From Arthrobacter sp. MN05-02 (GTDB taxonomy: Bacteria; Actinomycetota; Actinomycetes; Actinomycetales; Micrococcaceae), in NCBI GenBank assembly GCA_004001285.1, contig AP018697.1, positions 186,001 to 250,000 of the forward strand: a stretch of 64,000 nt of DNA, given 5' to 3'. A program made the translations under genes and the position numbers. The notes under the pieces are model-generated. The model did not search any database. It was given only the letters and a program-made list of their open reading frames with translations, and was not told the DNA's origin. Below are positions 36,362 to 58,013 of this stretch, in pieces (position 1 is the first letter of the stretch; each line of letters opens with the position of its first letter).

Positions 36362-37134
36362 AGGTCCTCCTCCGGCGAGACAGGCCGGTAGTGCACTGCG
36401 GGCCGACCGTTTCTTCCACCGTACGGACCACTGAATGGCAGCGACGCCGCTGTTACTCGAACGCAACAGGATTCCCAGCACTTCATCAGCTCACCCCAGA
36501 AGGGGCGGTAGGCCGCGACCCAGCAAAGGATGCCAACCGGGGGGCCATCTAAGTCCTTCGGTGAATGCTTGTCGCTCTGACCGGTGATGGCGTCCGAAAT
36601 GGGACAAGCCTCGCCGGTTCAGGAGGTCCTGGTGGTCCCCACGCAGAGTGGCGAATACGAACGCATTTGCTACATGTGCTGCCCTACCTCGTCGCCCTGG
36701 GTGAATCCCAGCGGCCACGCGGTTTCGACCGGCTAGAGGCGCTCGAACTGTTTGGAAAGCTTTAGGTTTTCGAGACGCGCTAGACAGACAGATGGTCCGC
36801 ATGGGTTCCGCATTTCGGCGTATGCCGGGCAGCAAGGCGGGCCGGTCTTAGGGGATGAGGGCGTTTGCCGCAAGTAGGTCGCGGCACTTAGCTCGTCCAC
36901 GGCATGCTTCCAAAACTGAATCTGGGAGCGTGTCGGAATTGGGTGAGTGAGGTGGGGTCTGAAGGCACGCCTGCAGAGCTCGAGCATTAAGAAGCCGTAG
37001 AGATGTGCGGCTTCACTGTGAGGAAAGCGTAAGGATCGGCTTTTTGGTTCGGTTCGGGGTGTGTACTCAGGCTCGTGCCTTTCAGGCACCCGTGCGGCAG
37101 GAAGCCGGCGGACCGTAGCCCGTTGGAGTTACTT
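36362..37134. other. Intergenic region upstream of kdp with a recombination-site repeat
   Basis: About 770 bases. It holds the 28-bp dyad at 36749-36776 and should contain the kdp promoter. A minus-strand frame 36733-37089 (AAHLYGFLMLELCRRAFRPH) has fairly natural composition but no supported start, and its 3' end runs through the 28-bp site; it could be a remnant cut by recombination there. Confidence 0.45.
36749..36776 (+). repeat. 28-bp recombination-site-like dyad, copy A
   Basis: Left arm TGTTTGGAAA, centre GCTTTAGG, right arm TTTTCGAGAC. The last 21 bases (from AAAGC to CGAGAC) are identical to copies at 49156 and 57986. The left arm is the most diverged of the four. Confidence 0.8.
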
Positions 37135-37218
37135 GTGCTTGACGTTGTCTATCTCGTGGGTATTGCAGCCCTGTTCAGTGTGGTTGTTTTGATTGCCCGG
37201 GCGGTGGAGAAGCTGTGA
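37135..37218 (+). CDS. KdpF-like micropeptide upstream of kdpF
   Basis: A 27-residue membrane peptide: VLDVVYLVGIAALFSVVVLI followed by ARAVEKL. It overlaps the kdpF start by four bases (GTGA). It resembles KdpF in size and topology, so the operon may encode two such stabilising peptides. It is too short for normal gene finders. Confidence 0.65.
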   Translation: MLDVVYLVGIAALFSVVVLIARAVEKL

Positions 37219-37304
37219 TCGTTTTCAACCTGATCGCCGTCGTCCTCGGTATCGCCGCCCTGGGTTACCTGGTGTACGCCCTCGTACGTCCGGAGCGTTT
37301 CTGA
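37215..37304 (+). CDS. kdpF: Potassium-transporting ATPase subunit KdpF
   Basis: A 29-residue single-span peptide, VIVFNLIAVVLGIAALGYLV then YALVRPERF, matching KdpF, which stabilises the KdpFABC complex in the membrane. The GTG start overlaps the preceding peptide's stop and its TGA overlaps the kdpA ATG (TGATG), so translation is coupled through the operon. Confidence 0.9.
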   Translation: MIVFNLIAVVLGIAALGYLVYALVRPERF

Positions 37305-38977
37305 TGACCCTCGCCGCGGCCATCCTGCCGCTACTGACCGTCGTCGTCGTACTCGCCCTGATCCACCGTCCGCTGGGCGATTACATGGCAGGGACCTTCA
37401 CCAGCACGAAAAACTTCCGGGTGGAGCGGGGGTTCTACCGCGTGCTCGGTGTCAACCCGGTGTCCCACCAGTCGTGGCGCTCCTACCTCACGGGCGTTCT
37501 CTCCTTCTCCGTGATCAGCGTCCTGCTCGTGTACGTGCTGCAGCGCACGCAGGCCCTGCTGCCTTATTCGCTCGGGTTGTCGGCCGTCCCCGAGGGTCTG
37601 GCTTTCAATACGGCCGTCTCGTTTGTGACGAACACGAACTGGCAGTCCTACTCACCGGAGATGACCCTCGGCTATACGGTGCAGATGGTGGGCCTAGCGG
37701 TGCAGAACTTCGTTTCCGCTGCCGTCGGGCTCGCCGTGGCTGTGGCTTTCGTGCGGGGTCTGGCCGCTCGTCGGAGTGCGACACTCGGTAACTTTTGGGT
37801 GGACCTGACGCGCGGACTCCTGCGGATCCTGCTGCCGGGTGCCGTCATCGCTGCCCTCGTGTTGCTTGCGGGCGGCGTTATCCAAAATTTCGCGGGCTTC
37901 ACCACCGTGACCACCCTGACGGGTGCGGAACAGACCTTGCCCGGCGGGCCGGTCGCCTCGCAGGAAGCCATCAAGATGCTCGGCACTAATGGTGGAGGTT
38001 TCTTCAACGCGAATTCCGCTCACCCTTTTGAGAACCCCTCACCTTGGACCAGCGTGTTCCAGGTCATCCTGATGCTCGCGATCCCCTTCAGCCTGCCGCG
38101 GACCTTCGGCACCTTGGTTGGGCAGCGCCGTCAGGGCTACGCGATCCTCGGCGCCATGTCCGCCATCTTCTTGTTGTCACTGACCGCGGTGACATTGGCC
38201 GAACTGGCGGGGAACGGCACAGCCCCGCAGGCCGCGGGGGCCGCGATGGAGGGCAAGGAGCAGCGGTTCGGCATTGTCGGATCCACTTTGTTCGGCTCTG
38301 CCAGCACCCTCACCTCCACCGGCGCTGTGAACTCGATGCATGACAGTTACACGGCCATCGGTGGGATGATCCCGATGGTCAACATGATGCTCGGCGAAGT
38401 CGCTCCGGGCGGTGTTGGCTCTGGCTTGTATGGGATGCTGATCCTCGCCGTCGTTACCGTGTTCATCTCCGGGCTGCTCGTGGGCCGGACGCCCGAGTAC
38501 CTGGGCAAGAGAATCGGTGCGCGGGAGATCAAGCTCGCGAGCCTCTACATCCTCACCATGCCGACCCTGGTCCTCGCGGGAACCGCGCTGAGTTTTGCGG
38601 TGCCGGCCCTCCGCGCGGACATCGACGGCACCTCGATCCTGAACCCGGGACTGCACGGCCTCTCCGAGGTGCTGTATGCGTTCACGTCCGCGGCCAACAA
38701 CAACGGCTCCGCTTTTGCGGGTCTTACGGCGAACACCCCTTGGCTCAATACCGCGCTCGGAGTGGTGATGCTGCTGGGACGTTTCCTGCCCATGGTGTTC
38801 GTGCTCGCCCTCGCCGGCGCGTTCGCCGCCCAGGGCAGGGTGCCTGCCACCGCCGGCACGCTGCCCACCGATCGCGTGCAGTCCGTCAGCCTGCTCGTCG
38901 GTGTCACCGTCATCGTCACCGCCCTCACCTTCTTCCCCGTGCTCGCACTGGGACCTCTTGCCGAAGGACTGCTCTAG
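37304..38977 (+). CDS. kdpA: Potassium-transporting ATPase potassium-binding subunit KdpA
   Basis: A 557-residue channel-like subunit of the KdpFABC potassium pump, with about ten membrane segments. The four selectivity-filter-like loops are visible, including NTAVSFVTNTNWQSYSPEMT, EAIKMLGTNGGGFFNANSAH, STLTSTGAVNSMHDSYTAIG and YAFTSAANNNGSAFAGLTAN. It belongs to the superfamily of K+ transporters and supplies the ion path. It starts at ATG 37304, coupled to kdpF, and is followed by kdpB after three bases. Expression should be induced by low potassium through KdpDE encoded downstream. Confidence 0.97.
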   Translation: MTLAAAILPLLTVVVVLALIHRPLGDYMAGTFTSTKNFRVERGFYRVLGVNPVSHQSWRSYLTGVLSFSVISVLLVYVLQRTQALLPYSLGLSAVPEGLAFNTAVSFVTNTNWQSYSPEMTLGYTVQMVGLAVQNFVSAAVGLAVAVAFVRGLAARRSATLGNFWVDLTRGLLRILLPGAVIAALVLLAGGVIQNFAGFTTVTTLTGAEQTLPGGPVASQEAIKMLGTNGGGFFNANSAHPFENPSPWTSVFQVILMLAIPFSLPRTFGTLVGQRRQGYAILGAMSAIFLLSLTAVTLAELAGNGTAPQAAGAAMEGKEQRFGIVGSTLFGSASTLTSTGAVNSMHDSYTAIGGMIPMVNMMLGEVAPGGVGSGLYGMLILAVVTVFISGLLVGRTPEYLGKRIGAREIKLASLYILTMPTLVLAGTALSFAVPALRADIDGTSILNPGLHGLSEVLYAFTSAANNNGSAFAGLTANTPWLNTALGVVMLLGRFLPMVFVLALAGAFAAQGRVPATAGTLPTDRVQSVSLLVGVTVIVTALTFFPVLALGPLAEGLL

Positions 38978-38980
38978 CCC

Positions 38981-56852: not shown

Positions 56853-56868
56853 ACTAATTCGTTTTAGT
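56853..56868. promoter_or_regulatory. LacI-type operator before the dehydrogenase
   Basis: ACTAATTCGTTTTAGT is a 16-bp dyad with a central CG and two mismatched pairs, 57 bp before the dehydrogenase start and 31 bp from the regulator start. Confidence 0.65.
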
Positions 56869-56924
56869 ACGTACAGTCCCTCCTAGTCCCATCAATCAGT
56901 AGGTGCAGCGCGTGAGGAGAAACC

Positions 56925-57942
56925 ATGAAGTCCGTCCACGTCACTGGGATCGATACCGTCCAGTGGATTGAGGTCGAGAAGCCCCAGGCGGGCCCGGCCG
57001 ATGTGCTCCTGGCCATGAAAGCTTGCGGCATCTGCGGTTCCGATGCCATGTACGCCCATGTCGGTGGGATCCTTCCCCGTCAAGGTGCGACACCGTTGGG
57101 GCACGAGCCCGCGGCTGAAGTGATAGAGGTCGGTTCCACCGTCGAGGGGATCGCGGTCGGTGACCACGTGGTCATCGACACCATGGCGTTTTCTGATGGG
57201 TTGCTGGGTTCTGGCGGCGCGCAAGGAGCCCTGTCGGAGTTCGTCGTTGTGCGCGACGCCGAGGTCGGACGTCAGCTACGGGTGATTCCCCGGCACATCC
57301 CATGGGAAGTCGCCGCTCTCAACGAGCCGATGGCTGTTGCTTTGCACGCCGTGAACCGCACGAAACCTACTTCCGGCAACAAGGTCGTGATCTTCGGAGC
57401 GGGACCCATCGGACTGGGTGCTGTTCTTGGCTATCGCCGGCAGGGCGTGGGCAGTATCGTCGTCGTCGACATCCTTCCGGCTCGACTGGAGACAGCGAAG
57501 AAAATCGGTGCAGACGCAGTAATCAACTCCGCCGAAGAGAACGTGGGCGAGCGACTAGTCGAACTCCACGGTGACGCCTCAAGCATGCTCACCCCAGGTG
57601 TGCGGCCCGGTACCGACATCTACCTTGATGCCGCCGGTGTGCCTGCGATCCCTGAGACGGTCACGAGCATCGCCAAGCACGGCGCTACCTACGGTATCGT
57701 CGCAACCCACAAGCGCCCCCGTAGAGCTCAACTTCGGCAACATGCTCACCACCGAGCTGAGCATCGTCTTCTCCATGGGCTACCCGACCGAGATCTTCGA
57801 GGTCACCGATGACATCATCGAGAACTGGGAGAAGTACGCATTGATCATCAGTGATCGTTTGCCTTTCAGGCGGGCACTCGAAGCACTCACCCTCGCCTCA
57901 ACGCCCGGGGCCGCGGACAAGGTGTCCGTCCTCTTCGATTAA
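56925..57942 (+). pseudogene. Zinc-dependent alcohol/polyol dehydrogenase, one frameshift
   Basis: A medium-chain dehydrogenase of the sorbitol/threonine dehydrogenase type. KACGICGSDAMYAHVGGILP and LGHEPAAEVIEVGSTVEGIA carry the catalytic zinc ligands (Cys, His-Glu). KVVIFGAGPIGLGAVLGYRR is the nucleotide-binding fold. The structural-zinc four-Cys loop is absent. A run of five C at 57716-57720 shifts the frame after THKRP; one base less continues VELNFGNMLTTELSIVFSMG to ADKVSVLFD. Corrected length 338. Under control of the divergent LacI regulator. Confidence 0.88.
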
Positions 57943-57985
57943 TGCACTGAGCAACAGTTCAGGACCGCCTCTTTGTGGCCGTTTC

Positions 57986-58013
57986 GTCTCGGAAAGCTTT
58001 AGGTTTTCGAGAC
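57986..58013 (+). repeat. 28-bp recombination-site-like dyad, copy D
   Basis: Left arm GTCTCGGAAA, centre GCTTTAGG, right arm TTTTCGAGAC: nine of ten arm pairs match, the most symmetric copy. It lies 13 bases past the stop of a serine recombinase gene. Confidence 0.88.

What the first reader, a model, noticed from the sequence alone, without database searches (positions are those of the whole stretch)
36749..58013. Array of four direct 28-bp dyads that resemble serine-recombinase crossover sites, delimiting functional gene blocks
Copies at 36749, 49156, 52451 and 57986 all face the same way and share centre GCTTTAGG (GCTTTTGG in one) with right arm TTTTCGAGAC (TTTACGAGAC in one). Read in reverse, the half-site GTCTCGAAAACC resembles the half-sites of Hin-type DNA invertases (hix: TTCTTGAAAACC, from memory). 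A small serine recombinase gene ends 13 bases from copy D. The blocks between copies are self-contained: kdp/Mn-catalase/PepSY (12.4 kb), MarR-quinone reductase and GH26-like (3.3 kb), MMPL/TetR and LacI/dehydrogenase (5.5 kb). Direct orientation would permit excision or integration of blocks, an integron-like cassette layout driven by a serine rather than a tyrosine recombinase. A degenerate fifth copy at 10242 lies upstream of a decayed resolvase.
Basis: partly seen in the sequence, partly recalled or inferred. Interest (0 to 1): 0.82.

Follow-up and report, generated by a model that had tools for sequence, protein, structure and literature searches.

The report
Resolvase crossover sites bordering gene blocks
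Four same-facing 28-letter DNA sites in this bacterium look like leftover swap points of a transposon's recombination enzyme, and comparison with related plasmids shows gene blocks being exchanged inside such sites.

Summary
The four direct 28-bp dyads are real (4 found, 0.05 expected), and so is the degenerate copy at 10242. They belong to nine good copies in this two-contig genome. Best reading: each is site I (the crossover site) of the res of a Tn5053/Tn402-like serine resolvase, called TniR here. In 20 of 40 distinct site-selected loci a TniR gene or relic starts 156-159 bp from the site. Conversely, 11 of 13 loci fetched by TniR alone have the dyad 157-169 bp upstream. The recombinase beside copy D is a different, frame-broken gene.

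Exchange at the sites is strongly supported. Among 51 distinct loci, 11 pairs share only the left flank, 26 only the right, 1 both. Informative differences bracket the middle of the site. All four combinations of two left and two right modules occur. Contig C2 of this genome holds the 'empty' version of B-D, lacking 8.8 kb.

No intact close TniR was found here, and A, B and D lack accessory sites, so the row is probably fossil. Resolvase shuffling is a known process; the actinobacterial system and long row appear new.

The parts
36749..36776 (-). Site I copy A (one end decayed; no canonical accessory region; right flank shared for about 135 bp with C2:138313)
49156..49183 (-). Site I copy B; its right flank (window 46440-49155) is shared with C2 from the site C2:145425 outwards
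52451..52478 (-). Site I copy C
52334..52450 (-). Accessory part of the res of copy C (GTCT repeats), shared at 73-74% with C2:5911 and C1:255717; no TniR gene follows
57986..58013 (-). Site I copy D; its left flank is shared with C2:145425
10242..10269 (-). Degenerate site I copy, core at 2 edits
36777..49155 (.). Block A-B, 12.4 kb: KdpA, P-type ATPase (KdpB), KdpC, KdpD, response regulator, Mn-catalase, PepSY-TM gene in two frames
49184..52450 (.). Block B-C, 3.3 kb: MarR regulator, zinc-type reductase, ORF with partial GH26 match; absent from the C2 counterpart
52479..57985 (.). Block C-D, 5.5 kb: MMPL, TetR, LacI, alcohol dehydrogenase; absent from the C2 counterpart
58027..58606 (-). Invertase-type serine recombinase in two overlapping frames (58313-58606, 58027-58383); neighbour of the site, judged not its enzyme
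33283..33900 (-). Intact serine recombinase, 205 aa, 39% identical to TniR; no site next to it; role in the row unknown

Best explanation
Each dyad is a copy of the 28-bp crossover site (site I) of a res site. Its enzyme is a small serine resolvase (TniR) that in relatives is encoded 130 bp further on, often next to a Mu/Tn402-type transposase gene and an AAA ATPase gene. The resolvase cuts two site I copies in their middle and rejoins them crosswise, so that what lies left of one becomes joined to what lies right of the other. In complete elements of relatives the cargo lies left of site I and the resolvase/transposase genes right, so the same reaction swaps cargo. In the window, such joinings, past and repeated, left a row of blocks with all sites in one orientation, as expected if circles or cointegrate arms are joined through site I. 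Shown: site identity across loci, linkage to TniR, module exchange inside the site, and an empty counterpart of B-D on C2. Inferred: that TniR did it, that the exchange is at the central two bases, that B-C and C-D entered as two events, and that the row is now inert.
For: A TniR gene or relic starts 156-159 bp from the site in 27 of 49 site-selected loci, 20 of 40 distinct ones. 11 of 13 plasmid loci fetched by TniR alone have the dyad 157-169 bp upstream. Conserved accessory sequence with GTCT repeats lies between site and gene. Of 1,275 pairs among 51 distinct loci, 11 share only the left flank, 26 only the right, 1 both. Differences inside the site bracket the exchange between positions 6 and 22 of 0-27. 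In same-left pairs with flank identity 0.95 or more the left halves are identical in 9 of 9; in same-right pairs at that level the left halves differ in 6 of 6 and the right halves agree in 5 of 6. All four combinations of two left and two right modules are seen. C2:145425 joins D's left flank to B's right flank. Reversed-pattern controls were 0.
Against: No intact TniR closer than 41% identity was found in this genome, and A, B, D, C2:138313 and C2:145425 lack the accessory region. In Tn3, two bare site I copies were reported not to recombine (PMC12217951, passage). 2 of 13 TniR loci lack the site, and 11 of 30 distinct non-own site loci lack a TniR at the expected distance. The C2 counterpart is diverged (98% left, 90% right), so the event is not recent. 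In the L004/L005 pair the change point fell at -452, the end of a truncated gene, not at the site. No recombination was assayed.
Confidence: 0.85

Rival explanations
1. One reading: the recombinase beside copy D recognises the dyads and moves blocks as an integron-like cassette system.
For: Its 3' end lies 13 bases from copy D, and the same junction occurs at C2:145425.
Against: The gene is frame-broken here and truncated on C2. Three plasmid relatives of it have no such site in the loci read. TniR is the enzyme found at a fixed distance.
Confidence: 0.04
2. The mosaic junctions come from homologous recombination or transposition and the site only marks the edge of a conserved region.
For: Some same-right pairs share long, nearly identical resolvase/transposase regions (3,001 bp at 100% in L071/L072), and transposon ends exist in relatives. 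In several same-left pairs the right flanks are diverged homologues (0.58-0.65), not unrelated DNA.
Against: Breaks fall in the same 28 bp from both sides, half-sites travel with their own flanks, and all four module combinations occur. The transposon ends lie 1.1-4.7 kb left of the site or about 3.0 kb right of it, not at it.
Confidence: 0.08
3. Another intact resolvase of the genome (C2:21686-22246 or window 33283-33900) uses these sites, so the row may still be active.
For: Both are open frames, 41% and 39% identical to TniR. A relative of the C2 one lies 3.3-3.9 kb from the site in both A. agilis plasmids.
Against: Neither lies at the 156-159 bp distance that TniR keeps, and no site was found beside either.
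Confidence: 0.1
4. The dyads are terminators or regulator sites.
For: They lie between genes and are partly palindromic.
Against: Unrelated genes abut them, they are tied to TniR at a fixed distance, and they are rare: 17 of 295 family genomes at 1 mismatch.
Confidence: 0.02

Closest known systems
Module shuffling by resolvases at res sites (Kholodii 2001, Gene 269:121; only title and citation seen) and CinH-RS2 of Acinetobacter plasmids (PMC9501444, section 2.6 read)
   Same: A small serine resolvase and res sites are held to rearrange plasmid modules; CinH is said to recognise res sites other than its own.
   Different: Different host group, resolvase and site; here a row of directly oriented bare site I copies lies in a chromosome island without an intact cognate gene.
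Tn5053/Tn402 family, 'res site hunters' (PMC7765201, PMC3960245 and PMC12217951, passages)
   Same: Resolvase next to res, Mu/rve-type transposase, AAA ATPase, cargo on the other side of res, insertions of related ends near res.
   Different: No TniQ gene was seen in the annotated regions read; ends are TGTGGA.. and not the TGTC.. type (recalled); one element has an 8-bp direct repeat where 5 bp is reported for the family.
pdif/dif modules of Acinetobacter (PMC9501444 section 2.6; others in listing)
   Same: Short recombination sites border exchangeable adaptive modules on plasmids.
   Different: Those depend on the tyrosine recombinases XerC/XerD and dif-like sites; here a serine resolvase and res site I.
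Hin/Gin-type DNA invertases
   Same: Half-site letters resemble hix (recalled); the best solved relatives of TniR are chains named DNA-invertase, 4m6f and 3uj3.
   Different: 28-bp site, one-sided accessory region, direct orientation; no inversion was seen.
Integrons
   Same: Blocks between repeated recombination sites of one orientation.
   Different: Linked enzyme is a serine resolvase; blocks hold whole operons of 3-12 kb.

Membership tests
res site I of a serine resolvase | Imperfect dyad of about 28 bp with a non-conserved or short central overlap | tested here: met
   28 bp, 7-11 of 14 palindromic positions in five copies, centre AA in 39 of 51 distinct loci
res site I of a serine resolvase | Lies upstream of a resolvase gene at a fixed distance | tested here: met
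   Met in relatives: 20 of 40 distinct loci at 156-159 bp, 11 of 13 TniR-selected loci. Not met at window copies A-D
res site I of a serine resolvase | Accessory resolvase-binding sites beside site I | tested here: inconclusive
   Conserved GTCT-repeat region in relatives and at 4 of 9 own copies (C, C1:255717, C2:5911, C2:18808); absent at A, B, D, C2:138313, C2:145425. Binding not tested
res site I of a serine resolvase | Strand exchange at the centre of site I | tested here: inconclusive
   Differences bracket the exchange between positions 6 and 22 of 0-27, which includes the centre; not resolved to two bases
res site I of a serine resolvase | Catalysed recombination | not testable with these tools
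   Needs an in vivo or in vitro assay
Tn5053/Tn402 transposon family | tniA (rve/Mu-type) and tniB (AAA) genes | tested here: met
   Pfam on L071; a Mu-type transposase is annotated beside TniR in 12 of 20 plasmid regions read
Tn5053/Tn402 transposon family | tniQ gene | tested here: inconclusive
   None annotated in the regions read; no model search for it was run
Tn5053/Tn402 transposon family | Family-type ends and 5-bp target duplication | tested here: not met
   Ends TGTGGA.., direct repeats of 8 bp (L071), 6 of 8 (L117), none (L072) in the three elements with both ends
Tn5053/Tn402 transposon family | Presence of such a transposon in the window | tested here: not met
   No strong end in C2 or 200 kb of C1: only scores 17.2 and 14.2 on C1 and 26.5 on C2, in two scans
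Hin-type invertase system | Inverted crossover sites of 26 bp used by an adjacent invertase | tested here: not met
   Sites are direct and 28 bp; relatives of the adjacent gene lack the site
Integron | Tyrosine integrase IntI with attI/attC cassettes | not tested
   No search for IntI or attC was run; the enzyme linked to the site is a serine resolvase

The most novel reading that the evidence does not exclude
Bare site I copies act as cassette borders: circles carrying one res insert one after another at a resident site I, so that a transposon's resolvase builds rows of directly oriented, swappable adaptive modules in Micrococcales, a serine-resolvase counterpart of pdif modules. The genome fits a two-step history: the 3.3-kb block bringing copy C's full res enters the empty site kept on C2, then the 5.5-kb block enters at the full res thus formed.
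Probability: 0.3. Interest if true: 0.75.

Novelty: new variant of a known kind. Interest (0 to 1): 0.58.

Why it matters
It offers a concrete, testable mechanism for the mosaic make-up of actinobacterial plasmids: shared SUL and CYT modules of Antarctic Arthrobacter plasmids were noted as possible horizontal transfer (PMC6305408, passages), and two of those plasmids (pA40H2, pA58H2) carry such a module ending at this site. It gives a 28-bp marker with which module borders can be predicted, and a natural test of whether resolvases, usually seen as cointegrate resolvers, also assemble gene rows.

Tried and rejected
Rejected: the recombinase beside D as the enzyme. Rejected: the site as a transposon end, since ends in relatives lie elsewhere. 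Led nowhere: a megablast of window 36700-58650 against plasmids gave 84 records, each listed match covering about 3% of the query (30 rows listed). Homologues of B-D in 38 genus genomes were matches to parts of the blocks, and the 9 of these loci that were scanned hold no site. NCBIfam gave no match above its cut-offs for TniR, transposase or ATPase. Literature: nine searches, seen as listings with abstract starts, plus passages of six papers and one section; nothing seen there describes this site or TniR-driven exchange in Actinobacteria. The library holds only openly licensed PMC papers.

Rows dropped: 9 near-identical loci before the 51-locus count; L118 and L126, which lack the site (script). 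The B/C2:145425 pair (L002/L005) fell below the 120-bp threshold and is not among the 37 discordant pairs, although one search aligns it from the site outwards (87% over 1,531 columns). Of 16 plasmid records matched by the site 9 were fetched; of 60 listed TniR records (77 matched) 13 were fetched.

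Full report
1. Observation. With 3 mismatches allowed the 18-base core occurs 4 times in 64 kb, where shuffles give 0.05. The genome has two contigs, C1 (3.49 Mb, the window being 186001-250000) and C2 (155 kb). Genome-wide the core gives 21 matches at up to 3 mismatches and the backward control 10; the nine with 0-2 mismatches are window copies A-D, C1:255717, and C2 at 5911, 18808, 138313 and 145425. 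Scored over 28 bases these nine have 22-28 matches; the control had none on C2 and two of 19-20 on 200 kb of C1. The copy at 10242 stands at 2 edits, where reversed sequence gives none at 2 and one at 3. The six copies in this part of C1 face one way and the four on C2 face one way. In 10-kb bins, G+C is 0.59-0.66 over C1 186-276 kb between flanks of 0.69-0.73, and C2 has 0.62. The stretch therefore looks plasmid-derived (inference).

2. What the site is. The consensus is GTCTCGAAAACCTAAAGCTTTCCAAGAC. Loci were collected from 38 genus genomes (5 with a match), 295 family genomes (17), 396 order genomes (5, all among the 35 of the same family), named genomes (7 stretches) and plasmids (16 records, 9 of them fetched). 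Backward controls were 0. In 27 of 49 site-selected loci, 20 of 40 distinct, a gene or relic of a serine resolvase, here called TniR, begins 156-159 bp from the site. Of the 10 own loci only C2:18808 has one, a 57-residue relic. The converse test: 77 plasmid records match TniR, 60 were listed, 13 were fetched; 11 of these 13 have the dyad 157-169 bp upstream and 2 do not. Between site and gene lies conserved sequence with GTCT repeats, where known res have accessory sites. In 12 of 20 TniR plasmid regions read, a transposase annotated as Mu-type is the neighbour. On L071 Pfam finds Resolvase, rve plus Mu-transpos_C, and AAA domains. The best solved relatives of TniR are two chains named DNA-invertase and the Tn3 and gamma-delta resolvases. 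I read the dyad as res site I of a Tn5053/Tn402-like resolvase; the name TniR is inferred from the neighbours.

3. The gene beside copy D is something else. It is in two overlapping frames, and its C2 relative is truncated with a stop. Three plasmid relatives have at best 16, 18 and 16 of 28 matches in their loci. Matches to TniR in this genome: two open frames at 41% (C2:21686) and 39% (window 33283-33900), a split gene at C2:111221-111758 (56% over residues 3-60, 40% over 59-187), the 57-residue relic at C2:18985, and weaker pieces. No intact close TniR was found. The two open frames cannot be excluded as enzymes.

4. Blocks are joined inside the site. After dropping 9 near-duplicates and two loci without a site, 51 loci were compared over 120-bp flanks (threshold 0.72; null maximum 0.62). 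Of 1,275 pairs 11 share only the left flank, 26 only the right, 1 both, 1,237 neither. In several same-left pairs the right flanks are diverged relatives (0.58-0.65), so the step is in identity, not always in homology. Of 21 pairs aligned over longer stretches, those that lose similarity near the site lose it at its edges. In 14 pairs tested for a change point, six same-left pairs gave 22-30 and seven same-right pairs 0-7; L004/L005 gave -452, the end of a truncated gene. Since the site itself is conserved, these are outer bounds: the exchange lies between positions 6 and 22 of 0-27. The central two bases are inferred from resolvase chemistry. Half-sites follow their own flank: with flank identity 0.95 or more, left halves are identical in 9 of 9 same-left pairs, while in 6 same-right pairs left halves differ in 6 and right halves agree in 5. 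One set shows all four combinations: left modules of L087/L120 and of L075/L076, right modules of L075/L120 and of L076/L087. Two plasmids of one Clavibacter capsici strain share 3,001 bp from the site rightwards at 100% and no alignable stretch left of it.

5. Anatomy in relatives. Inverted ends TGTGGA.. lie about 3.0 kb right of the site in L061, L062, L071, L072, L116 and L117, and 1.1-4.7 kb left of it in L065, L071, L072, L117, L123 and L124. The element is end - cargo - site I - accessory - tniR - tniA - tniB - end. Of three elements with both ends, L071 has an 8-bp direct repeat, L117 one with 6 of 8, L072 none. In L064, L049 and L053 an end of this kind lies 28, 33 and 38 bp past the site, and in L091 an end resembling that of Tn402 (recalled) about 31 bp past it. 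This is where res hunters are reported to insert, mostly between site I and II (PMC12217951, passage).

6. The window's own row. C2:145425 joins D's left flank (97.7% over 481 bp) to B's right flank (89.8% over 2,767 columns) at the site. C2 thus shows the place without the 8.8 kb of B-C and C-D. In Arthrobacter agilis TMP24, pAAG24-152 has 2.9 kb with GAF-domain genes between a degenerate 27-base site and a good one. The left flank of that degenerate site resembles, at 73% over 174 bp, the left flank of the single site of pAAG24-85. Own copies with an accessory region are C, C1:255717, C2:5911 and C2:18808; without it A, B, D, C2:138313 and C2:145425. A history in which each joining uses one full res is possible: B-C first, C-D second (inference).

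7. Against the cassette reading. Of 22 plasmid records 19 matched a 3-mismatch pattern and one of them at two distinct places; the pattern misses degenerate copies and the known sites of L124 and L125. In the genus, distinct places at 2 mismatches reach 8 only here, then 5 and 4 (14 of 38 genomes with any). Nine sibling loci with homologues of the blocks have no site. Bare site I copies of Tn3 were reported not to recombine (PMC12217951, passage). The row may be a fossil of events that used full res sites since lost.

8. Verdict.

Noticed in passing
C1 186-276 kb (window 1 to 12 kb past its end): G+C falls from about 0.70 to 0.59-0.66, close to that of contig C2 (0.62): probably a plasmid-derived island.
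   Followed up: partly
window 22527-26711 and C2:33540-37720: 4.2 kb shared at 99.4% between chromosome and C2, a recent exchange not at a site I copy.
   Followed up: no
window 46469-48147: PepSY-TM gene lies in two adjacent frames, probably broken.
   Followed up: no
window 51109-52285; C1:200600-201778; C2:8356-9704: A 1.2-kb sequence with a partial GH26 match occurs in three copies at 92-96% and has homologues in many genus genomes.
   Followed up: no
L071 (Clavibacter capsici pCM1): Complete 6.1-kb element: end, cargo with cation transporter and thioredoxin genes, site, tniR, tniA, tniB, end, with an 8-bp direct repeat on both sides.
   Followed up: partly
L049, L053, L064, L091: Transposon ends 28-38 bp past site I, separating it from the accessory region, as res hunters do.
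   Followed up: partly
L067 (WNZI01000002.1): A contig labelled Vibrio cholerae carries a locus near-identical to that of a genome of the window's own genus (L052): probably a mislabelled or contaminated record.
   Followed up: no
listing: TniR relatives occur on 77 plasmid records, Clavibacter, Arthrobacter, Paenarthrobacter and Rhodococcus foremost; cargo beside the site in those read is often metal or stress related.
   Followed up: partly
C1:1813111 and C1:1819205: A resolvase remnant and a decayed site I copy lie 6 kb apart, perhaps an old integration.
   Followed up: no
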